A stretch of 64,000 nucleotides of DNA, from contig NZ_OX443569.1 of assembly GCF_947539375.1 (NCBI RefSeq), positions 1,488,001 to 1,552,000 on the forward strand. Direction: 5' to 3'. How positions within the stretch are numbered: the first letter of the stretch is position 1; each line of letters begins with the position of its first letter. A program made the translations under genes and the position numbers. Shown piece after piece: positions 1,061 to 57,185 of this stretch. The notes under the pieces were generated by a model that saw nothing but the letters and a program-made list of their open reading frames with translations, was not told where the DNA came from and ran no database searches. The DNA is from Lactobacillus isalae. GTDB lineage: Bacteria; Bacillota; Bacilli; Lactobacillales; Lactobacillaceae.

Positions 1061-4000
1061 TTACTTATTTCTACGCTTCTTACTTGCACCTAGTCCGAAT
1101 AAACTACTTACTGCCGCAATAGCTAAACCTAATACACCAGCTGCATTTTCTGACTTAGCACCTGTTTGTGGCAAAGTAGCTTTTTCAGAATGCTTAATTT
1201 GTTGTGCTGGAGTTGCAGAAGCCTTCTTTTCATTAGTTTCTGCAACATGCTTAGTGATAACTTTAGCAGTATTGTTGCTATTGTTTTCCTTGGCGACAGC
1301 ATCGACATATACCTTAACTGTTAAGTCTACGCTTGAACCATCTGGATAAGTTACCGTAATGACACCAGTGTGTTCACCGACTGTATTGACATTTGGTACT
1401 TCTTTCCAAGTGTACTTAGTACCTGCTGGCATTTCATCCTTGTTCTTAATAGCATCTGCTGGGTTTGGAAGAACGCCTGGAGTAGTGTGAATTGGCTGTG
1501 TTTCTGGTGTTACATTGTTTGTATTAACAACTACCTTCACAGTTACTTCATCCTTTGAACCATCTGGGTAAGTTACTACAATCACACCAGTACTTTCACC
1601 TGGCTTAGTTACATCTGGGGTCTTCTCCCATGTGTACTTAGTGCCATCTGGTAAGTCACTCTTGTTCTTGATGCCTTCTGCTGGATTTGGTACAACGCCA
1701 GTCTTAGTGTCTACGTCTTGTCCTTCTGGAGTGTACTTGTCTGCATCGGTTGCTGGATTGGTTACGTGGATGGTTACTGGGACTTCGTCCTTTGAACCGT
1801 CTGGGTAAGTTACTACAATCACACCAGTACTTTCACCTGGCTTAGTTACATCTGGAGTGTCCTTCCAAGTGTACTTAGTGCCATCTGGTAAGTCACTCTT
1901 GTTCTTGATACCTTCTGCTGGATTTGGTACAACGCCAGTCTTAGTGTCTACGTCTTGTCCTTCTGGAGTGTACTTGTCTGCATCGGTTGCTGGGTTGGTT
2001 ACGTGGATGGTTACTGGGACTTCGTCCTTTGAGCCATCTGGGTAGCTTACAACAACAGTTGCTGGCTTGTCTCCTGCTGTAGTTACATCTGGGGTGTCTT
2101 TCCATGTGTACTTAGTGCCATCTGGTAAGTCACTCTTGTTCTTGATGCCTTCTGCTGGATCTGGTACAACGCCAGTCTTAGTGTTCACATCTTGTCCTTC
2201 TGGAGTGTACTTGTCTGCATCGGTTGCTGGGTTAGTTACGTGGATGGTTACTGGGACTTCGTCCTTTGAGCCATCTGGGTAGCTTACAACAACAGTTGCT
2301 GGCTTGTCTCCTGCTGTAGTTACATCTGGGGTGTCTTTCCATGTGTACTTAGTGCCATCTGGTAAGTCACTCTTGTTCTTGATGCCTTCTGCTGGATCTG
2401 GTACAACGCCAGTCTTAGTATTTACGTCTTGGCCTTCTGGAGTGTACTTGTCTGCATCGGTTGCTGGGTTGGTTACGTGGATGGTTACTGGGACTTCGTC
2501 CTTTGAGCCATCTGGGTAGCTTACAACAACAGTTGCTGGCTTGTCTCCTGCAGTAGTTACATCTGGGGTGTCCTTCCAAGTGTACTTAGTACCATCTGGT
2601 AAGTCACTCTTGTTCTTGATGCCTTCTGCTGGATCTGGTACAACGCCAGTCTTAGTATTTACGTCTTGGCCTTCTGGAGTGTACTTGTCTGCATCGGTTG
2701 CTGGGTTGGTTACGTGGATGGTTACTGGGACTTCGTCCTTTGAACCGTCTGGGTAAGTTACTACAATCACACCAGTACTTTCACCTGGCTTAGTTACATC
2801 TGGAGTGTCCTTCCAAGTGTATTTAGTGCCATCTGGTAAGTCACTCTTGTTCTTGATACCTTCTGCTGGATTTGGTACAACGCCAGTCTTAGTATTTACG
2901 TCTTGGCCTTCTGGAGTGTACTTGTCTGCATCGGTTGCTGGGTTGGTTACGTGGATGGTTACTGGGACTTCGTCCTTTGAGCCATCTGGGTAGCTTACAA
3001 CAACAGTTGCTGGCTTGTCTCCTGCAGTAGTTACATCTGGGGTGTCCTTCCAAGTGTACTTAGTACCATCTGGTAAGTCACTCTTGTTCTTGATACCTTC
3101 TGCTGGATTTGGTACAACGCCAGTCTTAGTATTTACGTCTTGGCCTTCTGGAGTGTACTTGTCTGCATCGGTTGGGTTCTTAGTTACAGTTACGGTAACT
3201 GGTACTTCAACAGGTGAGCCATCTGGGTAAGTTACAATAACTACAGCTGGTTTTTCACCTTCAGTAGATACATCTGGTGTTGTCTTCCATGAGTACTTAG
3301 TACCATCTGGTAAATCATCTTTGTTGGCAATACCTTGGTTTGCATCTGGTACTTCACCGACCTTAGTAGTTACATTTTGACCAGTTGGAGCTACTGGAGC
3401 ATATTTAATGTCAACAGTGACATTCTTAGTTTCAGCAGTAACTTCTTCAGCTGCTACTTTAGCTTGACTTGGAGTGTACCCTTTAACAGTTGGTGCATTA
3501 AATTCTGCCCAAGTACCATTTGCTTGGTTAAGTTCACCTGCCACATGCCATGCGTTCCAAGTAATCTTGCCAGTCACTGGATCAGTGTAACCGGCATTAC
3601 CTTGAGCATCTTCACGAGTAAAGTGAACGGTTTGCTCATGACTTACTGGATCTTGACCTGGTTCATGAACCACAATCGTACGAGTTACGTACTGGTTCAT
3701 GTCATCGTTTACGCCTTCTTGACCTGGCTTGTATGGTACTGGAGTATCAGCTTGCTTTTGGTAACTTACTGTGACGTTTGCACCATTTTGTGGTTCGCCA
3801 TCTTTTTCTGTTACTGCAGCTGCTGGTACTTCGGTTGACTTTGTACCATCTACGTATGAATCGTAACCTTTAATTTGTTCTACACTAGTTGAAGCAAATT
3901 CTGCTTTACCACTCTTAACGTGCCATGCGTTCCAAGTAATCTCGCCAGTCACTGGATCCTGGTAACCTGCGACGCCATTAACATCACGAGTGTAGTCTAC

Positions 4001-7000
4001 GGTTTGCGTTACTGGGGCAATTGCTTCATGTCCTGCTGGTACTTCGTAGTTAATGGTACGGGTTACTGACTTATTCATATCCTTATTTGAAGGATCATAT
4101 GGTACTGGAGTATCAGCTTGCTTTTGGTAACTTACTGTGACGTTTGCACCATTTTGTGGTTCGCCATCTTTTTCTGTTACTGCAGCTGCTGGTACTTCGG
4201 TTGACTTTGTACCATCTACATATGAATCATAACCTTTAATTTGTTCTACACTAGCTGAAGCAAATTCTGCTTTACCACTCTTAACGTGCCATGGGTTCCA
4301 AGTAATCTCACCAGTCACTGGATCCTGGTAACCTGCGACACCGTTAACATCACGAGTGTATTCTACAGTTTGTGTTACAGGGGCAATTGCTTCATGTCCT
4401 GCTGGTACTTCGTAGTTAATGGTACGGGTTACTGACTTATTCATATCCTTGTTTGAAGGATCATATGGCACTGGAGTTGCAGCTTGTTTTACATAAGTAA
4501 TGCTATCAGTAATATTGCTTGAATCCGGATTTACTGTTACTGCTGCTACTTCGGTTGCCTTAACACCATTTACATAGCTGTCATAGCCCTTTTGTTCTTT
4601 AATGTTGTAAACTGGGAAAGTTTCACTGTTTGAATTCCATGCATTCCAAGCAATATCACCAGTTACTAAGTCCTTCACACCAGTACGTTCAAATTCAACT
4701 GAAGCAGTTCTTACAACATGCATATCGGCATTAGTCTTGCCAGCTGGTACTTCTTGGATGGTTTGGGTAATCTTCCGGTAAGTATCTTTGTTATTCTTGT
4801 CAACAGGAACGACTTTAGTACCGTGTTCAACTTTGTAGTCTACAGGTTGTGGATCATTTGAACCGAACTTGTAAGATCCGATAACTTGTTGCTTTGGAAC
4901 TAATTTCCAGTTAGTTGGAACATGTCCAGGTACATCAACATTAACAGTTTCATCAGTCTTACCAGGAACATTGTAAGTACCTACTACAGTACCATTACCA
5001 TCAACATAATTAATTACTAAAGTATGTTCGTTAGCAGTGTAAGTTACATTAACAGTTTCATTTGATGAATCTGGAGTAATTGTTGCTGAAGCTGGAACAT
5101 ATTGCTTACCATTAACAGTTTCAATAGTTGCACCAGTTGCAGTAGCAGTGTAGCCAGGTTTAGTTACTTCATATTGTGGGAAGTTCGTTACTGCTTGACC
5201 TTCACTATTCTTAGAAGCTGCCCAATCAGTGTAACTGATTTGTTGATCTGCTGGCTTAGAAAGATCAGTTATCTTAGCACGACTGTAAATTACGTGTTGA
5301 ACAACTGGAGTACTTTCGCCTTCAACATTAATCGTACGAGTAATATCACGATAAATGTCGTGGTTAGTCTTATCATCAACACCTTGATCAACCTTGATTA
5401 CATTTACAGCTACTGGAACATCAAGATAACTACCATCAGTGAAGTTAATTCGTACTGTTGCAGGAGCCTTAGCATTAGCTTCAGCAAGACTTGGTAAAGT
5501 TTGCCAGTTAACTGAACTAATTTCAGAATTATGATCAGCAGTTAAATCATTAGTATTTACAAGCTTGGAAGCATCTCCTAAAGCAGTCTTCAAATCGCTA
5601 ACGTCGGAGTTAACGCTTGGAATAGTACCATTAGCTTCTGCACCATAAATGTAAACTGATGGGAATGGATAAGTTGATACTGGACCTTTTCCATAAATTG
5701 GCCAGTTTACACTTGAGCTGTTAACAACAGCTGAATACTTAGGATAACCAAATTGATTATTGACCCAGTTAGTATAAGTAATCGTCTTGGTTCCACCATT
5801 GTTGTCTGATACTAAGCTTGATGGTTGACCATTACCTTCGATTGCACCTAATGCATTATTGAATAGAACCTTGCCTGCTTCAGTCCAACTAATCTTAATG
5901 TCACTAGCATTAATAGTTTGTGGAGCATTAATAGTTACACCAGCCGGATTATCACCAGTTTGGGTAAGAACATATACAGTCTTGTCGGCATTCAAAGTGT
6001 AAATGTATGGCTTGCTGTAGTTTTGACCACCTTGGTAATAACTTAACTTGAAGTTTTCAATTACTGGTTCACCGATAATGTTCTTATCTGAGGTCTTGTG
6101 AGTTACTACATCATTAGCATGTAGACTGAAGACATGACCATTATCGATAACAGTAACATCTCCTTGACCATTTACAGCAACCGGAATTGTTACTGTTTCA
6201 GTAGTACCATCTGGATAAGTTACAGTTGCCGTACCAGTAGTTGCACCAGGCTTTGAAGTATCTGGTTTAGTAGTCCAAGTTGCAGCTGATGGATAACCGT
6301 CAACTGGAGTAGTACCACCATTATTCAAGTTGGCAATTCCTTCAGTGGCAGCTGGATTACCGCCAACAGTAGTAGTAATTGATTTAATCTCTGGCTTAGC
6401 ATTAACAACTACATTAGTTGGAACTTCGTCCTTAGAACCATCTGGGTAAGTTACTACAATAACTGCTGGTTTCTTACCTGGAGTATTTGTATCTGGAGTA
6501 TTTTCCCAAGTATAAGTTGTACCACTTGGTAAAGTATCTGGATTCTTAATGCCCTTTTTAGCATCAGGAACTTCTCCAACCTTAGTTGAAACATCTTGCC
6601 CTTGTGGATTATGGTTTTCTGCATCAGTAGTTACCTTGATTGAATTTGCTGGAATGTTAACGTTCAAGTAAGTTGGATTACCATTAGTATCCTTATCAGT
6701 AAAGGTGATCTTAATTACGCCGCCTTGACCTTGTTCATCAGGTTTAGTTGCCCAAGTAGTAGTTGCAATTTCGTCAGTTGGAATATTGTTTTCTACTAAT
6801 TGTCCAAATTGTTCACTAGTCAAATCTGAGCCAAGTTTAATATCAACTGGAGCAGTTACAGCCTTAGCACCAGCACCTTTAGCATCAATGGTAAATGGGT
6901 TAGTAGTTACAACACCATTCTTTGAGCCTAGGATGTTATTAGCGGCATCATTGTTAGTGAGGTCAATCTTAATAGTATTATTTTCAATTTGCTTACCAGC

Positions 7001-9964
7001 TGCAGTTGCTGTATCAACATTAGTATCTGGAGTTGTAGTCCAGCTAACAGTTGATGGATCAATCGTAATTGGCGTAGCAGTAGTTGAAATCTTACCATCT
7101 GTTAATTCGTAGCCTTCTGCAGTTACAACAGTTGCTGGAGAAAGTACTTGTGAATTTTCAGTAGTTTCGTGAGCGTTAAGTTTAGAAGTATCAACAGTAG
7201 TTACAACTGCACCATTATCACCCCAAGTTATAGTTTGTCCTGCCTTAGTAACAATTACTGGCACAGTAGTTTCATCAGTACTCTTGTCTGGGTAAGTTAC
7301 AGTTACTGGAATATTGTAAGCACCTGGAGTTACATCGGTATTTGGTTCAATAGTTACAGTACCATTTGATGGATCAATGGTTGCCCAATCAGGGGTATCA
7401 GTACCTGTAGTAAATGTAGTTCCAGTTGGCGCAGTAATATCCTTACCATCTTGATCAGTAAATGCTGGATCATCAGTAGCAGATTGACCTTGTTCAACAT
7501 TTACTGGCTTATATGATGGTGTGTAAAGGTTTGCATCAATCTGATTGGTTACAACAAATGGAACATCAACAAAGTCAATTGAACCATCAGCATAAACAAT
7601 TGTTGCAGTTTGATGTGCTGGAGTATCACCAGTTACTTCAAAATTACCATTACTACTTGTTGGAACCGATTTTGGTTGAATTAATGGATAATTCTTGTAT
7701 TGGTTGGTGAATTCAGCGCCATCGGTAGTAGCGTCGTACCAGTGAGTTTTTGTCCAATCTACCGTCTTATTGTTGTCCAAAGCATCTGCAACAATACCAT
7801 TTGGTCCTTGAATATTTTCAATACCATCTTTAACTGTAAAATCAGTTAACTTATGTTGCGTATTAGTATCAATTTCTTTTACTGTTGGTTGATACTTAAT
7901 ATTATCCTTAATGTTTTTATCTTGGTTCAACTTAGTACCCATTGCTAAACGCTGTGGTTGCCACCAGCTGAAGTTGTTGAGCAATTGGTTTAAGTAAAGC
8001 ATTTGAACTGTCTTATCAGATAAGTTACTCAAATCAATACCTGTAGTAACACTTTGACCACCTTGGTTCTTACCAAGAGTAACGCCATTAGTATTAGAGT
8101 TTATTAACTTGTCAGTTCCTTGCTTAGCTGCAGGATTACTAGTACCCGGAGTATAAGCATCAGCGTAGTTTCCCCATTGATTGGTTGTCATCAAGTTTTG
8201 TAAGTACCAAACAAATGATGGAGCATCGCTAGTATTACCTTGTTCCCATTGTGCAGTTGGAGTATTGTATTGGCCTGAAGCAGTTCCTGAGATCTTATTC
8301 TTATCGCTGTTAACTTTAACACCATTGTAATTCAAGTAGGCACCGTTAACCGTACCTTCAAGGCGGATAAAGTTACCAACAGTATCCTTACCTACCCGTT
8401 GGAAGTTTAAGTAATAAGGGTTAGTAATATCTAAGACAGCTTCATTGCTTGTCCCAAAGAGGCTAATTAAACCAGCTTTGGAAATCTTAGGATTATTTAA
8501 ACCAACAGAGTCCCAACCGGAAGGTACAGCTGCGTTATCTTGTAAGTCTAAGGTAGCGCCATCACCAACCTTAACAATATAGGTATTATTGTTAGCACCA
8601 CCAGAACCAAAGGCAATTAGTGGTTCTGCTGCTGGTAAGATGGTGCCACTGGCGTCAGTAGTATCACGTTTAATTGTTAAACTACCTTCGTTAATTAAGC
8701 TAGCATCATGGCTTGCTATATTACCGACATTACCAACTGCAATTGAAATTGGTGCATAGTGGTAACCATTGAAGTTTGTTACTCCGTTAGTACCTACAGC
8801 CACACCATTATTATCTTGCTTCGTATTAATATTAACGACACCAGTCTTACCAATGGCTACATTACCTGTAACAATAGCAGAGGAGTGACCATTACCCATG
8901 TTAGCATTAAGATTACCATTAATCGTAACAGTACCGTTTAACCCAAATTGGGTAGTGTTAGCAGGATTATCATTAGTCCAGATACCACGAACATCAGTTA
9001 CTGTAGCATCCTTATCTAAGGCAACTGCATTTAGGTTTAGGGTAGCACCTTCATTAATGGTAAAGGTACCCCTGTCGATTTCAAACATGTTACCACCAAA
9101 GTTATCTACATTGTTAGTCTTGTAAGTACCAACATTCATAGTGGTGGTACCAGATTCAACTGTTAAGGTACCAGTTTGAATAGTAGAACCATAGTTAACT
9201 AATTGACTGTTATCTGCGTTAACCCCATTATTGTTAATCGTGTTGTCACCCTTTAAGACAACATTAATCACTGCGTTATGACCACCACCAACTCTATGGC
9301 TATCACCTGCAATAAATGGTCCTTGCTTGATATTAGCAGTAACTCCATCTAAAGTAATAGTATCTTTTTGACCGTTCTCGGTACTTACATTACCAAAATA
9401 GAAAGTACCATATCCACCACCATAAATAGTCCGTTGATAACCATCACCATTAACAGTAATACCTTTTAAAGTTAAGTCCCATGCAGAATTATTAGTCCCT
9501 TGGTTAGCATTGGTAAATGCTAAAAAGTTAGTACCAAAGTCAATGGAATGTTGTCCTTGACCATCAATTGTCAGCTTACGAGCAATATTAGATGCAGTTA
9601 CATCCAATTCCCCGAAGTTGTCCTTAATAGCATTAGCCACGTTGCCATTAGCAGTGATGTTGTTTGTTAAAACAATATTACCAACATTGGGATTAATTAA
9701 AGCTGCACCAAATGAATTCCAGTCGGATACTTCTAGAGTTTGACCTTGGCTAGAATGAGCTGTAGGAACAGCTGCAAGACTTGAAGAAAGTGTAGTATGA
9801 GAATCTACCTTTTTATCACGAGATTGAGAACCATTTGTGTTAGTGTTATTAATAGCTAGGGTAGTAGTTTGAGGAGTACTTACATTATTGTCCCCAGCAT
9901 CTTCATGCTTAGTTTGTTCTATCTTATCGTTAGCAGTGGTAGTTTTTGATGAGTCTGAATCCAT
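1061..9964 (-). CDS. Giant LPxTG adhesin with Rib and mucin-binding-like repeats (main reading frame, separated from its signal peptide by a frameshift)
   Basis: A 2,967-residue frame that is really the body of one gene starting at 10314; the frame is open upstream as far as the G10 tract. From the N terminus: a S/T/N-rich region, a beta-helix 'pectate-lyase-like' adhesive region (about residues 75-500) rich in G-N-T-I-N repeats, several diverged Rib-like domains each ending in a TYPDGS-type strand, MucBP-like segments (LVINYVDGNGTVVGTYNVPGK), two near-identical 122-residue blocks, seven near-identical 79-residue Rib repeats, then LPQTG, a hydrophobic helix and a KKRRNK tail. It should be anchored to peptidoglycan by sortase and stand far out from the wall. 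Adhesion to mucus or epithelium is inferred from family. As sequenced, the protein cannot be exported, because the signal peptide is out of frame. Confidence 0.9.
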   Translation of the reverse strand: MDSDSSKTTTANDKIEQTKHEDAGDNNVSTPQTTTLAINNTNTNGSQSRDKKVDSHTTLSSSLAAVPTAHSSQGQTLEVSDWNSFGAALINPNVGNIVLTNNITANGNVANAIKDNFGELDVTASNIARKLTIDGQGQHSIDFGTNFLAFTNANQGTNNSAWDLTLKGITVNGDGYQRTIYGGGYGTFYFGNVSTENGQKDTITLDGVTANIKQGPFIAGDSHRVGGGHNAVINVVLKGDNTINNNGVNADNSQLVNYGSTIQTGTLTVESGTTTMNVGTYKTNNVDNFGGNMFEIDRGTFTINEGATLNLNAVALDKDATVTDVRGIWTNDNPANTTQFGLNGTVTINGNLNANMGNGHSSAIVTGNVAIGKTGVVNINTKQDNNGVAVGTNGVTNFNGYHYAPISIAVGNVGNIASHDASLINEGSLTIKRDTTDASGTILPAAEPLIAFGSGGANNNTYIVKVGDGATLDLQDNAAVPSGWDSVGLNNPKISKAGLISLFGTSNEAVLDITNPYYLNFQRVGKDTVGNFIRLEGTVNGAYLNYNGVKVNSDKNKISGTASGQYNTPTAQWEQGNTSDAPSFVWYLQNLMTTNQWGNYADAYTPGTSNPAAKQGTDKLINSNTNGVTLGKNQGGQSVTTGIDLSNLSDKTVQMLYLNQLLNNFSWWQPQRLAMGTKLNQDKNIKDNIKYQPTVKEIDTNTQHKLTDFTVKDGIENIQGPNGIVADALDNNKTVDWTKTHWYDATTDGAEFTNQYKNYPLIQPKSVPTSSNGNFEVTGDTPAHQTATIVYADGSIDFVDVPFVVTNQIDANLYTPSYKPVNVEQGQSATDDPAFTDQDGKDITAPTGTTFTTGTDTPDWATIDPSNGTVTIEPNTDVTPGAYNIPVTVTYPDKSTDETTVPVIVTKAGQTITWGDNGAVVTTVDTSKLNAHETTENSQVLSPATVVTAEGYELTDGKISTTATPITIDPSTVSWTTTPDTNVDTATAAGKQIENNTIKIDLTNNDAANNILGSKNGVVTTNPFTIDAKGAGAKAVTAPVDIKLGSDLTSEQFGQLVENNIPTDEIATTTWATKPDEQGQGGVIKITFTDKDTNGNPTYLNVNIPANSIKVTTDAENHNPQGQDVSTKVGEVPDAKKGIKNPDTLPSGTTYTWENTPDTNTPGKKPAVIVVTYPDGSKDEVPTNVVVNAKPEIKSITTTVGGNPAATEGIANLNNGGTTPVDGYPSAATWTTKPDTSKPGATTGTATVTYPDGTTETVTIPVAVNGQGDVTVIDNGHVFSLHANDVVTHKTSDKNIIGEPVIENFKLSYYQGGQNYSKPYIYTLNADKTVYVLTQTGDNPAGVTINAPQTINASDIKISWTEAGKVLFNNALGAIEGNGQPSSLVSDNNGGTKTITYTNWVNNQFGYPKYSAVVNSSSVNWPIYGKGPVSTYPFPSVYIYGAEANGTIPSVNSDVSDLKTALGDASKLVNTNDLTADHNSEISSVNWQTLPSLAEANAKAPATVRINFTDGSYLDVPVAVNVIKVDQGVDDKTNHDIYRDITRTINVEGESTPVVQHVIYSRAKITDLSKPADQQISYTDWAASKNSEGQAVTNFPQYEVTKPGYTATATGATIETVNGKQYVPASATITPDSSNETVNVTYTANEHTLVINYVDGNGTVVGTYNVPGKTDETVNVDVPGHVPTNWKLVPKQQVIGSYKFGSNDPQPVDYKVEHGTKVVPVDKNNKDTYRKITQTIQEVPAGKTNADMHVVRTASVEFERTGVKDLVTGDIAWNAWNSNSETFPVYNIKEQKGYDSYVNGVKATEVAAVTVNPDSSNITDSITYVKQAATPVPYDPSNKDMNKSVTRTINYEVPAGHEAIAPVTQTVEYTRDVNGVAGYQDPVTGEITWNPWHVKSGKAEFASASVEQIKGYDSYVDGTKSTEVPAAAVTEKDGEPQNGANVTVSYQKQADTPVPYDPSNKDMNKSVTRTINYEVPAGHEAIAPVTQTVDYTRDVNGVAGYQDPVTGEITWNAWHVKSGKAEFASTSVEQIKGYDSYVDGTKSTEVPAAAVTEKDGEPQNGANVTVSYQKQADTPVPYKPGQEGVNDDMNQYVTRTIVVHEPGQDPVSHEQTVHFTREDAQGNAGYTDPVTGKITWNAWHVAGELNQANGTWAEFNAPTVKGYTPSQAKVAAEEVTAETKNVTVDIKYAPVAPTGQNVTTKVGEVPDANQGIANKDDLPDGTKYSWKTTPDVSTEGEKPAVVIVTYPDGSPVEVPVTVTVTKNPTDADKYTPEGQDVNTKTGVVPNPAEGIKNKSDLPDGTKYTWKDTPDVTTAGDKPATVVVSYPDGSKDEVPVTIHVTNPATDADKYTPEGQDVNTKTGVVPNPAEGIKNKSDLPDGTKYTWKDTPDVTKPGESTGVIVVTYPDGSKDEVPVTIHVTNPATDADKYTPEGQDVNTKTGVVPDPAEGIKNKSDLPDGTKYTWKDTPDVTTAGDKPATVVVSYPDGSKDEVPVTIHVTNPATDADKYTPEGQDVNTKTGVVPDPAEGIKNKSDLPDGTKYTWKDTPDVTTAGDKPATVVVSYPDGSKDEVPVTIHVTNPATDADKYTPEGQDVNTKTGVVPDPAEGIKNKSDLPDGTKYTWKDTPDVTTAGDKPATVVVSYPDGSKDEVPVTIHVTNPATDADKYTPEGQDVDTKTGVVPNPAEGIKNKSDLPDGTKYTWKDTPDVTKPGESTGVIVVTYPDGSKDEVPVTIHVTNPATDADKYTPEGQDVDTKTGVVPNPAEGIKNKSDLPDGTKYTWEKTPDVTKPGESTGVIVVTYPDGSKDEVTVKVVVNTNNVTPETQPIHTTPGVLPNPADAIKNKDEMPAGTKYTWKEVPNVNTVGEHTGVITVTYPDGSSVDLTVKVYVDAVAKENNSNNTAKVITKHVAETNEKKASATPAQQIKHSEKATLPQTGAKSENAAGVLGLAIAAVSSLFGLGASKKRRNK
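1522..3180 (-). repeat. Seven tandem 237-bp Rib-domain repeats
   Basis: Seven direct repeats of exactly 237 bp (79 codons), marked by the TPEGQDV motif at each unit start. Two alternating versions of the second half exist (TTAGDKPATVVV and TKPGESTGVIVV), showing shuffling by recombination between units. One diverged Rib unit flanks each side. Copy number is expected to vary between strains. Confidence 0.92.
3734..4465 (-). repeat. Two tandem 366-bp repeats (122-residue MucBP-like block)
   Basis: Units 3734-4099 and 4100-4465 are almost identical at DNA level. Each encodes a block that begins VPYDPSNKDMNKSVTRTI and contains YTRDVNGVAGYQDPVTGE. A partial, diverged third block lies on each side. 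Confidence 0.85.
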
Positions 9965-10059: not shown

Positions 10060-10314
10060 TTACCCCCCCCCCATTTTGTCTGCTAGAGTAGCTCCAGCGC
10101 TACTTTGGCTTTGCTCATTATCTTTTGCATTTTGCACTACTGCTGGTTTTTCTTGTTGCTCAGCAGCTTGAGCTTTTTGATTTCCAGCTATACTCATAAA
10201 ACTAAAACCAATTAAAACAGAAGCAGCTCCAATAGAAAATTTTCTAATAGAGAAACGTTCTTTTCTTGGCTCCATTTTCCGAAGTTTTTCTTTATAATTA
10301 TTTTTTGATAGCAT
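10060..10314 (-). CDS. N-terminal exported stub of the giant adhesin (YSIRK-type signal peptide, ends at the G10 tract)
   Basis: An 84-residue frame starting at ATG 10314, preceded by a GGAG ribosome site. Residues 18-50 form a YSIRK-type signal peptide (ERFSIRKFSIGAASVLIGF), with likely cleavage after QAQA/KAQA. The frame enters a run of ten G and stops at TAA immediately after it (MGGG-stop). Adding one G, or removing two, joins this frame to the 2,967-residue frame downstream and gives a single protein of about 3,084 residues. In the sequenced state only a short secreted peptide would be made. This is either a phase-off variant or a homopolymer miscall; the paired promoter tract favours real variation. 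Confidence 0.85.
   Translation of the reverse strand: MLSKNNYKEKLRKMEPRKERFSIRKFSIGAASVLIGFSFMSIAGNQKAQAAEQQEKPAVVQNAKDNEQSQSSAGATLADKMGGG
10063..10072 (-). repeat. Intragenic homopolymer G10 (frameshift switch)
   Basis: Ten C on the plus strand, ten G in the coding sense, at codons 81-84 of the adhesin gene. With 10 G the frame hits TAA at once; with 8, 11 or 14 G it reads through into the main frame. Slipped-strand mispairing at such tracts is a classic phase-variation mechanism. Confidence 0.85.
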
Positions 10315-10603: not shown

Positions 10604-10635
10604 ATTGTACCCCCCCCCTTAGATTTTTGTGTCAA
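10604..10635 (-). promoter_or_regulatory. Promoter of the giant adhesin with a G9 tract in its spacer
   Basis: On the minus strand: -35 TTGACA (10630-10635, perfect), an 11-nt segment, nine G (10610-10618), then -10 TACAAT (10604-10609). The spacer is 20 bp, 3 bp above the optimum, so G6 or G7 would give 17-18 bp. The 5' leader to the start codon is about 290 nt, AT-rich, and contains a stem-loop near 10478-10503. The same layout recurs at 57042-57073. Confidence 0.75.
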
Positions 10636-53832: not shown

Positions 53833-56800
53833 TTACTCTTTCCGATCCCTACTTCTGTCTGCTCCAAAAATTCCTAGACCTAAAGTTGCAAGAAACATAC
53901 CTAGTAAACTTGCAAAAAATCCTTGTTTCTCACTAGTCTGTGGCAATTTAACTTTATTTGTAGTTACACCTTTTTCATTGCTTGTTTGATCATGTTTAGA
54001 AAAATTCGAGACTTGTGAATTGTTCTTACTATTAATTACTTGATTATTAAATTTGTTATTTTCATTTGTAATAGTACTTAACTTTGCTTGATTGCCTTTC
54101 ATACTATTGTACTTAGAAAGAATAGGAGTACTTGATGATCTATTAACAGTGACCTCTACCTTATTATTTTCACTATAGTTATTTTGTTTATTAATTTTGA
54201 CGATGTCACTTAGTTTAGTATCTTCGTTTTCACTACTATTATTTTTAAGATTACTAATTGGACGTTCTTTTATATCATCATGCTTAGAAATGATAAGAAC
54301 ATTCGATTTTCCGTTAACAACTGTTTCAATCTTGTTAACTTTGTTGTTTTTATTTTGACTATTTTCTTTCGTCTTAATAATTTCACTTAATTTAGTAACT
54401 TTAGCTTGCGCTTCATTAATATCATTTTTAAGATTACTAATTTGGCGATCTAGCTCAATAATTTGATTGTTAGTTGTCTGATAATCAGTATTAGCAGTAT
54501 CGTAGTTACCCTTAGCTTTTTTAAATTCTTCAGCTTTAGTTGCTAAATCTATTTTTGCTTTCTTCAGCTTATTGTCAGCATCCTGATAAGCAGCTAAATA
54601 ATTATTAAAAGCAGTTTGTGCTCTTAGTAGATTTTCGTTAGCAACAATTTGAGAGTTTTTTGCACTTGATACTTTTGCTTCTAAATCCGTCAATTGTGTA
54701 TTAACAATATCTAACTCTTTATTAATTTGTCCCAATTTGTCCTGAGCTTGTTTGAGATTTTGAGTAGCACCAATTTTATTGTTATTAGCTAATTTAAGAT
54801 CATCATTTACTTTATCTAATTGAGTTTTAGCCTTTGAATAATCCTTAATTGCATCAGCATGTTTTTGTTGGTATGCATTTAGATCGTTGGTAGCTTTATT
54901 CTGGGCTTGTATCAATACAGGTTGAGAAGATTTTAAATCAGAAATATGCTTTGAAATAGTATTAATGCTGTCCTCAACTTCATGTTTTTGCTGTTTAGCC
55001 TTTGCAAGTTCATTAGATAAGTTACTAATTTTTACCGTTAAATCATTAATAATATGTTGATTATTCTTAATTTGGTCATTAATGTTTTGAATCTGGTTAT
55101 TTAGGTTGTTCTTTTGTGCAGTTAAATTATTAACTTCATCTGCAGCTTGATTATAAGCTTGTTGCACCTTGGAGTTATCAGCACGGTCCAATGAAATATT
55201 ATCCTCTGTGTCAAATTTACTTTTGTCACCAATATATCGAGGTAATAGACTCAACTCTCCATCTTTTGTCTGAATATCCCCTGGAACATCAATAAAGTGG
55301 AATAATACCTCATAAGTGTCTTGCCCAGTTCCATCATCATATTTATCTGGTTGTATACTCATACTCATCCCGGCATAGATAGGCCGATTTTTGTGAGTAC
55401 CCCATTTGTCGTAGTCAGACATGTATCCCATAGTCAATAAACCTTGTGCATGATTCCATTCTTTCTGACTGAAAATCATTAATTTAATGGCGTTGTAAAT
55501 ACCTTCTTTTAACTTATCCATACTCATTGATACGGCGTCGGCATTTTTGGCATTTTTCGGCACAACAAATGAGTCAGCCATATCTTCATAATAATTTTTC
55601 GTAGGATCTAATCCATATTGTTGGGCAGCTAAGCTAATTGCAGGAGTATCATGTCCCCGATAACGATCATATTTAGGATCATCCATCATAAATCTATCTT
55701 TTATATAATTCTTAGCAATTTCATCAGCAAAAGCCATAGCACTTCTATTTAAATTTACAGGCTTTTTTCCCATCTGAACGCGGATCTGGTTAATCAAGCG
55801 AGTGCTAAATTTATTAAGTTCAAGTTTTTCATTTTCAGTCATGTGATTAACATTAACCATACGTTTTTCATCTTGTGTATTGTGCTTAAAGTTATTTAAC
55901 TTTTCTCCCTCTGAAGACACTAGACGCATTTCATTTTCATATTGCTTGTAATTAAATTTGACACCGCCATCTTTTATTACTAGTCCATCGACGCCGTCAA
56001 TACCTAACCACTTAATAAAAGTATTTTTATAATTTTCTGGCACAACAAATGAAGATTGATTATAACTATCTAGTTTTGTTTTAGCACCGTCTCTTTTATC
56101 AACTGCTTCTGTTAATTTAATATTTACATTATTTATTTTTTTTTGAATATCATTTGCCTTAGTTTGAATACCGCTCAAATTACTTTGGGTATTAGTCAAT
56201 TCAATATTTGCAGTACTCAAGTTATTTTGAATACTATTAACAGCCTTATCTAAGTCATTGTTATTAGTTTGTAAATCAGATAGTGCTTTTTGACTTTTAG
56301 CTAAATCAGATTTATTTTGCTCTAAATCTTGTGTTGCTTTATTTGTAGCAGATTTCTTAGCTTCATATTCTTCTTGAATTTGTGCATAATGTTTTTGTAC
56401 ATTACCAAAATTCTTTTGAGCTTGTATCTGATTTTCTTGTACTTTAGCTAAATCTTCATTAGCTTTATTTAAAGTTTCAGTATTAGCTTTAATTTCACTA
56501 TCAGCAGTATTTTTTTGGTCAATTAAATCATTTTGCTTATTTTTAGAATCTTGTACTTGATCTTCAAGATCTTTTTCATTTTTATCTGCATTATCTTTAT
56601 CTACTTGCGCAGATTTTACATTATTTTCAAATGATGAATCATATTTAGTAGCATATTTATTTTGAACATCTTGTGCAATTTCTAAGTTACCTTTTGCTTT
56701 ATCTAAAGCTTTTTTGGCTTGTTCAGCAGTTGCTTGCTTTTGTTCTAAAGTCGCAGTTAATTCTTTTTTAGAGTCTTCAGCTTTAATTTTATCTGCCTGC

Positions 56801-56997
56801 TTATTAGTTAAATCCTCTTGTACTTTGCGCAATTCTGCCTTATCCTTAGCACTACTTTCTTGAATTGCATTACTATCGTCTTGGATTTTATCAGCAGGTT
56901 GCTTTACTACTGTATCTGCTTTAGCAGTATTACCATTAATTGCAAACGCACCAGCTACAAACAATGCTGACATTAACATCGTTGTTCTTCTTCTCAT
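53833..56997 (-). CDS. LPxTG surface protein with SEC10/PgrA surface-exclusion-like domain between coiled coils
   Basis: A 1,054-residue wall protein: signal peptide (1-28, ending AKA), a long coiled coil rich in Q, N, K and D (about 35-310), a CAP-like SEC10/PgrA domain (about 315-620; LINQIRVQMGKKPVNLN, WGTHKNRPIYAGMSMS), a second coiled coil (about 630-920), a Ser/Asn linker with a repeated LSDIVK/LSEIIK-type segment, and LPQTS (about 1018) before a hydrophobic helix and RSRDRKE. PgrA relatives affect aggregation and conjugation on pheromone plasmids; here the gene is chromosomal and the role is likely adhesion. ATG 56997 follows GGAGG. The promoter carries a G9 tract. Confidence 0.88.
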   Translation of the reverse strand: MRRRTTMLMSALFVAGAFAINGNTAKADTVVKQPADKIQDDSNAIQESSAKDKAELRKVQEDLTNKQADKIKAEDSKKELTATLEQKQATAEQAKKALDKAKGNLEIAQDVQNKYATKYDSSFENNVKSAQVDKDNADKNEKDLEDQVQDSKNKQNDLIDQKNTADSEIKANTETLNKANEDLAKVQENQIQAQKNFGNVQKHYAQIQEEYEAKKSATNKATQDLEQNKSDLAKSQKALSDLQTNNNDLDKAVNSIQNNLSTANIELTNTQSNLSGIQTKANDIQKKINNVNIKLTEAVDKRDGAKTKLDSYNQSSFVVPENYKNTFIKWLGIDGVDGLVIKDGGVKFNYKQYENEMRLVSSEGEKLNNFKHNTQDEKRMVNVNHMTENEKLELNKFSTRLINQIRVQMGKKPVNLNRSAMAFADEIAKNYIKDRFMMDDPKYDRYRGHDTPAISLAAQQYGLDPTKNYYEDMADSFVVPKNAKNADAVSMSMDKLKEGIYNAIKLMIFSQKEWNHAQGLLTMGYMSDYDKWGTHKNRPIYAGMSMSIQPDKYDDGTGQDTYEVLFHFIDVPGDIQTKDGELSLLPRYIGDKSKFDTEDNISLDRADNSKVQQAYNQAADEVNNLTAQKNNLNNQIQNINDQIKNNQHIINDLTVKISNLSNELAKAKQQKHEVEDSINTISKHISDLKSSQPVLIQAQNKATNDLNAYQQKHADAIKDYSKAKTQLDKVNDDLKLANNNKIGATQNLKQAQDKLGQINKELDIVNTQLTDLEAKVSSAKNSQIVANENLLRAQTAFNNYLAAYQDADNKLKKAKIDLATKAEEFKKAKGNYDTANTDYQTTNNQIIELDRQISNLKNDINEAQAKVTKLSEIIKTKENSQNKNNKVNKIETVVNGKSNVLIISKHDDIKERPISNLKNNSSENEDTKLSDIVKINKQNNYSENNKVEVTVNRSSSTPILSKYNSMKGNQAKLSTITNENNKFNNQVINSKNNSQVSNFSKHDQTSNEKGVTTNKVKLPQTSEKQGFFASLLGMFLATLGLGIFGADRSRDRKE

Positions 56998-57041
56998 TCT
57001 TACATCCTCCAAGTATATTAAATAACGGCATATACAAGGCT

Positions 57042-57073
57042 AGTTTACCCCCCCCCATTTTTACTTTAGTCAA
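57042..57073 (-). promoter_or_regulatory. Promoter of the PgrA-like gene with a G9 tract in its spacer
   Basis: Minus strand: -35 TTGACT (57068-57073), 11 nt, nine G (57048-57056), -10 TAAACT (57042-57047): a 20-bp spacer, identical in layout to the adhesin promoter. The start of the transcript shares a GCCGTTATTT-type box (57018-57041). The leader is short (about 40 nt) and ends in GGAGG. Confidence 0.75.
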
Positions 57074-57135: not shown

Positions 57136-57185
57136 AATAAAAAAGTTCCTGATCTCATCAAGTGAAATCAGGAACTTTTTTATTT
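57136..57185 (-). terminator. Terminator of the lactate permease gene
   Basis: AAAAAAGTTCCTGAT / ATCAGGAACTTTTTT stem with a 13-nt loop; T-runs on both strands. Confidence 0.88.

What the first reader, a model, noticed from the sequence alone, without database searches (positions are those of the whole stretch)
57042..57073. Second promoter of identical design 46 kb away, before the PgrA-like LPxTG gene
TTGACT, 11 nt, nine G, TAAACT: same 11+9=20-bp spacer as the adhesin promoter. Two unrelated surface genes with the same slippery promoter imply a dedicated switching module. Each could flip independently, giving four surface states.
Basis: seen in the sequence. Interest (0 to 1): 0.9.

Follow-up and report, generated by a model that had tools for sequence, protein, structure and literature searches.

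The report
Slippery poly-G promoters of Lactobacillus surface genes
A run of nine Gs sits between the two control boxes of a surface-protein gene's promoter in a Lactobacillus, and the same design recurs before other surface-protein genes here and in related species, so it probably works as a slippage switch that turns surface proteins up and down at random, although no switching has been measured.

Summary
In detail: on the minus strand, TTGACT-N11-G9-TAAACT lies upstream of a SEC10/PgrA LPxTG gene, and the same design precedes the Rib/YSIRK adhesin 46 kb away. It is not chance. The host chromosome holds a third copy before an SH3/PgrA-domain gene. A genus scan finds the design in 14 of 75 genomes; the reversed pattern hits 5, a poly-C version 2. 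Eighteen of 22 sites have seven or more Gs (12 genomes): 16 precede secreted or wall-anchored proteins, 2 predicted membrane proteins. Two genomes with 3 mismatches in 9,880 aligned bases differ in one such tract (G9/G8), as slippage predicts. Best reading: a family of promoters whose spacer changes length by replication slippage, giving heritable graded expression. The mechanism is known from Neisseria opc; I found no report of it in lactobacilli. Sequenced spacers are mostly 19-20 bp, probably low-expression states. Switching was not observed.

The parts
57068..57073 (-). -35 hexamer TTGACT
   Evidence: sequence
57048..57056 (-). nine-G tract in the promoter spacer (spacer 57067-57048 = 11 + 9 = 20 bp)
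   Evidence: sequence
57042..57047 (-). -10 hexamer TAAACT, followed by the conserved AGCCTTGTAT start region
   Evidence: sequence; start region compared over 20 sites
53833..56997 (-). SEC10/PgrA surface-exclusion-domain protein with LPQTS sorting motif; ATG at 56997 after GGAGGATG (ORF listed as 53833..57012 from a TTG)
   Evidence: TIGR04320, 164 bits, cut-off 70; ATG position; LPQTS
57137..57183 (-). terminator-like hairpin between the upstream permease-like gene and the poly-G promoter (that the promoter is the only one of the gene is inference)
   Evidence: scan: 2 overlapping sites, shuffle mean 0.0
10604..10635 (-). first copy of the design: TTGACA-N11-G9-TACAAT
   Evidence: sequence
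10063..10314 (-). YSIRK signal-peptide start of the Rib adhesin, ending at an in-frame stop just after a coding G10 tract (10072-10063)
1061..9964 (-). rest of the Rib/RibLong/Muc_B2 LPxTG adhesin, in another frame from the signal peptide in this assembly

Best explanation
The feature is one member of a family of housekeeping-type (sigma-A) promoters whose spacer contains a run of 7-9 G next to the -10 box. Replication slippage in the run lengthens or shortens the spacer by single base pairs; because RNA polymerase prefers about 17 bp, each step changes transcription of the downstream surface-protein gene in a heritable, reversible and graded way. The constant part of the spacer is 11 bp in 17 of 20 sites, so alleles with G7-G9 give 18-20 bp; the sequenced alleles, mostly 19-20 bp, are probably weak or off, with shorter tracts as the stronger states. 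The promoter occurs before several surface-protein families, so it behaves as a portable cis element. Shown: anatomy, recurrence, genes downstream, one tract difference between near-identical genomes. Inferred: use by RNA polymerase, effect of length on expression, population switching.
For: Design at three places in the host chromosome. 14 of 75 genus genomes against 5 of 75 for the reversed pattern and 2 of 75 for poly-C; of the two poly-C sites one is antisense inside a kinase-like frame and the other lies upstream of a GlmS-like gene without the layout (names by eye). Of 22 distinct genus sites 18 have seven or more G (12 genomes): 16 precede secreted/anchored proteins (PgrA-type, Rib/YSIRK adhesins, LPxTG proteins, a GH68 levansucrase, a small secreted protein), 2 precede membrane proteins (the small secreted and the membrane proteins, and two close homologues, judged by eye). 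N11 in 17 of 20 and tract abutting the -10 in 17 of 20. G058 and G059: 9,880 aligned bases, 3 mismatches, 2 internal single-base indels, one of them this tract (G9/G8). Of 39 G8+ tracts in nine related genomes, 13 are in this design and 6 in the exopolysaccharide-type promoter, all 19 with G on the non-template strand (sorted by my reading).
Against: No expression data and no length polymorphism within one strain. 17 of 20 spacers are 19-20 bp, longer than optimal, which would also fit a promoter needing an activator. G058 is a metagenome assembly, so its one-base difference could be a homopolymer error; a second close pair (99.3% identical) has equal tracts. Most PgrA-type genes examined lack the element. 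The four genus sites with only G6 do not follow the pattern: two lie inside coding frames, one overlaps the start of a hydrolase-like gene, and one (L027) is a plausible 17-bp-spacer promoter before an ABC-transporter gene. The 18 sites are not independent, several being homologous. A promoter core with a similar start region but no G-run exists before a lipoprotein-like gene in G053 (L204; the other three non-G matches lie inside coding frames). Outside the genus 10 of 372 genomes match against 4 of 372 for the reversed pattern, and of those ten sites only L059 and L060 look like the design before a surface protein.
Confidence: 0.75

Rival explanations
1. A regulated promoter: the long 19-20 bp spacer is fixed and needs an activator that binds or twists the G-rich spacer (as MerR-type activators do at 19-20 bp spacers, recalled), so expression follows a signal rather than slippage.
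For: Spacers cluster at 19-20 bp in 17 of 20 sites, and the start region AGGCTTGTATC-NACC is conserved beyond what a bare promoter needs. An orthologue keeps 19 bp with an interrupted tract GGGAGGGG.
Against: Tract length varies 7-9 between sites and 8/9 between two near-identical genomes; a G-run is not the dyad that MerR-type proteins bind (recalled); the interrupted allele stands before a gene that is itself split between two frames, which fits decay better than function.
Confidence: 0.13
2. Shared descent without switching: the promoters are copies of one ancestral promoter that happens to contain a G-run, kept by recent duplication and gene exchange.
For: Start region, leader and in some cases signal peptide are similar between copies; the L. 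taiwanensis locus is a mosaic of neighbours of two host-genome loci.
Against: The run is kept while flanks diverge to about 67-75% identity in four pairs; a neutral run would be expected to shorten or be interrupted; sites with little other similarity (levansucrase, G021, G044) have the same N11 geometry.
Confidence: 0.09
3. Homopolymer sequencing or assembly artefact.
For: Homopolymers are error-prone; draft genomes and metagenome assemblies are among the hits.
Against: The tract is in a single-contig genome and recurs in single-contig and draft assemblies, with matching -35 and -10 boxes.
Confidence: 0.03

Closest known systems
Neisseria meningitidis opc promoter (poly-C tract; Sarkari et al. 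1994, as cited in PMC3960869, passages seen)
   Same: Homopolymer of variable length in the promoter region of a surface adhesin, giving transcriptional phase variation.
   Different: Gram-positive host; G rather than C; several genes of different families share one promoter design; switching not yet shown here.
N. meningitidis porA promoter and Mycoplasma hyorhinis vlp promoters (recalled, no call)
   Same: Homopolymer between -35 and -10 changes the spacer (porA, poly-G); several surface genes share one homopolymer promoter design (vlp, poly-A).
   Different: Different base or host; no sequence relation tested.
Bifidobacterium breve pilus G-tracts (PMC9187656, passages seen)
   Same: Gut commensal, G-tract slippage controlling sortase-dependent surface structures.
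   Different: There the tract lies between the signal-peptide and anchor reading frames; here in the promoter. The coding G10 of the adhesin at 10063-10072 is the closer parallel.
Gardnerella homopolymer tracts (PMC11287997, passages seen)
   Same: Gram-positive, many tracts of 8 bp or more upstream of genes, with length variation seen between colonies.
   Different: No conserved promoter family was described in the passages seen.
Lactiplantibacillus plantarum msa promoter inversion (PMC8493755, passages seen)
   Same: Heritable on/off state of an adhesin promoter in a lactobacillus.
   Different: Works by DNA inversion, not slippage.

Membership tests
Promoter-spacer homopolymer phase-variation loci (opc type) | homopolymer of at least 7-8 nt between recognisable -35 and -10 boxes | tested here: met
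Promoter-spacer homopolymer phase-variation loci (opc type) | tract length differs between otherwise near-identical genomes | tested here: inconclusive
   one pair, G058/G059: one of two internal indels in 9,880 aligned bases; assembly error not excluded; a second close pair, L033/L043, has equal tracts; both pairs are other genes of the family than the window's
Promoter-spacer homopolymer phase-variation loci (opc type) | tract length changes transcription | not testable with these tools
   no expression data
Promoter-spacer homopolymer phase-variation loci (opc type) | reversible switching within a clone | not testable with these tools
   no reads; one genome per species held
Promoter-spacer homopolymer phase-variation loci (opc type) | controls a surface-exposed product | tested here: met
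   16 of 18 G7+ genus sites precede secreted/anchored proteins; that the promoter drives them is inferred from position
SEC10/PgrA surface exclusion proteins (TIGR04320) | domain score over the curated cut-off, and LPxTG anchor | tested here: met
   164.4 bits, cut-off 70; TIGR01167 16.7 bits, cut-off 15.9; LPQTS motif
MerR-type long-spacer promoters | dyad-symmetric operator in a 19-20 bp spacer | tested here: not met
   by eye only: the spacer is an A-rich stretch plus a G-run, no dyad

The most novel reading that the evidence does not exclude
A group of gut lactobacilli carries a portable poly-G promoter cassette (promoter plus leader, sometimes with the signal peptide) that has been placed in front of unrelated surface genes, and that together with a poly-G promoter of an exopolysaccharide-type operon and coding tracts forms a slippage-driven contingency network over the whole cell surface - a layer of heritable heterogeneity for which eight searches of the open library gave no report in this genus.
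Probability: 0.5. Interest if true: 0.75.

Novelty: new member of a known kind. Interest (0 to 1): 0.62.

Why it matters
L. johnsonii and its relatives are commensals, some of them used as probiotics (recalled). If their adhesins and exopolysaccharide switch by slippage, one strain is a mixture of surface types, which could affect adhesion, phage sensitivity and host response and could explain strain and batch variation. It would also make phase variation by promoter slippage testable in a harmless Gram-positive.

Tried and rejected
The search for related loci with the PgrA-like protein in genome contigs: 20 stretches matched a pattern, none confirmed as a relative. The plasmid collection gave no match.

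The idea that PgrA-type genes in general share the element was rejected. The 39 regions were my choice of long frames (three of them below the family cut-off) from a capped list; the window gene, the third host gene and the G014 gene, which carry the tract, were not among them. One region (L129) is an SMC-like wrong pick, L107 is cut by a contig end, and several starts are uncertain (L106, L116, L118, L121, L127). L102 has unread bases just after its tract.

A fixed-spacer version of the promoter was looked for in 20 genomes: of 14 matches 10 have the G-run, 3 lie inside coding frames, and 1 (L204, G053) may be such a promoter before a lipoprotein-like gene. A poly-C version was rejected. The five reversed-control sites and the four were not inspected. 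Whether the exopolysaccharide-type promoter in the three related genomes without a G8+ tract has a shorter run was not looked at. PHROGs, PADLOC, structure prediction and RNA tools were not used, as they do not bear on a promoter; no trans-acting factor was searched for.

Literature: eight searches aimed at lactobacilli listed no report of poly-G or slippage promoters in Lactobacillus; two more sought Neisseria precedents. Subscription papers are mostly not held. Passages only were seen of PMC3231926, PMC9187656, PMC8493755, PMC11287997, PMC3711429 and PMC3960869; other papers were seen as listings.

Full report
Observation. On the minus strand at 57073-57042 the window reads TTGACT, 11 nt, nine G, TAAACT; the adhesin promoter at 10635-10604 has the same layout with TTGACA and TACAAT. 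Both spacers are 20 bp. The PgrA-like gene begins at ATG 56997 behind GGAGGATG, and a terminator-like hairpin at 57183-57137 separates it from the upstream permease-like gene, so the poly-G promoter may be its only promoter (inference; other, weaker hexamer pairs exist). The product has the SEC10/PgrA domain (TIGR04320, 164 bits, cut-off 70) and an LPQTS motif.

More copies in the same chromosome. The host genome (2.12 Mb, one contig) holds 14 tracts of seven or more G and eight of eight or more. Three of the eight have the TTGAC design: the two in the window and one at 1883583, before a protein with SH3 domains and a PgrA domain (134 bits) whose N-terminus is 64% identical over 45 residues to that of the window protein. 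A fourth poly-G promoter of another layout (TTGATT-4 nt-G8-6 nt-TATACT, spacer 18) precedes a gene pair that looks like the start of an exopolysaccharide operon (LytR/CpsA/Psr-type protein, then a chain-length-determinant-like protein; names by eye).

Controls. In 75 genomes of the genus the pattern TTGAC-N10-13-G6-N0-7-TANNNT occurs in 14 genomes; the same pattern reversed in 5; with C in place of G in 2. After merging overlapping matches I count 22 sites. I set aside four with only G6: two inside coding frames, one overlapping the start of a hydrolase-like gene, one a plausible ordinary promoter before an ABC-transporter gene. Of the 18 left, in 12 genomes, 16 precede secreted or anchored proteins and 2 membrane proteins. 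Of the 16, 13 are supported by a family match to the gene or its full-length locus; L043 and L037 were judged from their likeness to L033 and L192, and the small secreted protein of L031 by eye. The L. johnsonii gene behind L037 is split between two frames in its assembly. The two membrane proteins (L024, L029) have no family match and were judged by eye. In a family-wide sample of 397 genomes with a G7 pattern, 17 match (7 of 25 in the genus, 10 of 372 outside) against 4 for the reversed pattern, all 4 outside the genus. Of the ten outside sites, which I read one by one, only L059 and L060 look like the design before surface proteins; L060 has the PgrA domain (161 bits), L059 a weak match (20.8 bits, cut-off 70); the same sequence as L060 is found in a record named Candidatus Ligilactobacillus excrementigallinarum.

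Geometry. Over 20 sites (the 18 plus L059 and L060) the stretch between -35 and tract is 11 nt in 17, the tract touches the -10 in 17 and is 1 nt away in 3; tracts are G7 (5), G8 (9), G9 (6); spacers are 20 (6), 19 (11), 18, 16 and 15 bp. The start region after the -10, about AGGCTTGTATC-NACC, is also conserved, and I do not know why. The sequenced alleles are thus mostly longer than the 17 bp that sigma-A promoters prefer (established knowledge), which suggests weak or off states; this is inference.

Slippage. G058 (identical over 6,000 bases to the metagenome assembly MGBC166701) and G059 align over 9,880 bases with 3 mismatches and two internal single-base indels; one indel is the tract before a PgrA-type gene, G9 against G8, the other a poly-A run. 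L033/L043 (99.3% identical) have equal tracts. The exopolysaccharide-type promoter has a G8 or G9 tract in six of nine related genomes, with spacer 18 in five and 19 in one; the other three were not examined there.

Spread of the element. Its adhesin orthologue lacks the poly-G promoter: the upstream alignment shows a gap there. So copies have been gained, lost or exchanged. Among 39 chosen regions upstream of long PgrA-type genes of the genus, 5 have a G8+ tract, 1 the interrupted tract and 33 no run of six or more G within 400 nt.

Wider contingency picture. Of 39 G8+ tracts in nine related genomes I sort 13 into this promoter design (one has unread bases where its -10 should be), 6 into the exopolysaccharide-type promoter, 5 into a short frame upstream of murC, 4 into coding regions of surface proteins, and 11 elsewhere. 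The window adhesin thus has two tracts, one in its promoter and one in its coding region; in this assembly the coding tract leaves the frame interrupted, and in L. taiwanensis it also does with another length.

Reading. The most likely mechanism is spacer-length phase variation by replication slippage, as in Neisseria opc (PMC3960869, passages). Commensal parallels are the G-tracts of Bifidobacterium pilus genes (PMC9187656, passages) and homopolymers in Gardnerella (PMC11287997, passages); in lactobacilli a promoter inversion is known (PMC8493755, passages). Eight searches of the open library aimed at lactobacilli listed no slippage promoter there. The step that remains unproven is switching itself.

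Changed on checking: the statement that no G-free version of the core stands before a surface gene was withdrawn (L204), the G6 sites are told one by one, the length-difference test is marked inconclusive, and confidence was lowered from 0.76 to 0.75.

Noticed in passing
window 10063-10072: G10 tract inside the coding region of the YSIRK/Rib adhesin, directly followed by an in-frame stop; the L. taiwanensis orthologue has G7 at the same place and is also out of frame.
   Followed up: partly
L130 / L141 (host genome 946277-946285): G8 between TTGATT and TATACT before a LytR/CpsA/Psr-type and exopolysaccharide-type gene pair; a G8 or G9 tract in six of nine related genomes, spacer 18 in five.
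   Followed up: partly
L196 (host genome about 1250434): G8-G10 tract in a short reading frame between a CutC-like gene and murC (names by eye); length differs between species.
   Followed up: partly
L166 (host genome 1460157): G8 near the 3' end of an RpiR-like regulator gene (name by eye).
   Followed up: no
L149 and L157 (G014): G8 inside a PgrA-type gene and G9 inside a YSIRK-like signal peptide, both splitting the frame in the assembly.
   Followed up: no
L160 (G033) and L185 (G014): G8 and G9 tracts at the same place in a D-alanyl-D-alanine-carboxypeptidase-like gene, splitting the frame in both assemblies; name by eye.
   Followed up: no
window 57041-57027 (minus strand) and the same place at the other promoter sites: Conserved AGGCTTGTATC-NACC start region just after the -10, with no known role.
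   Followed up: no
L028 (G035): The same promoter design with G8 before a GH68 levansucrase/invertase-family gene.
   Followed up: no
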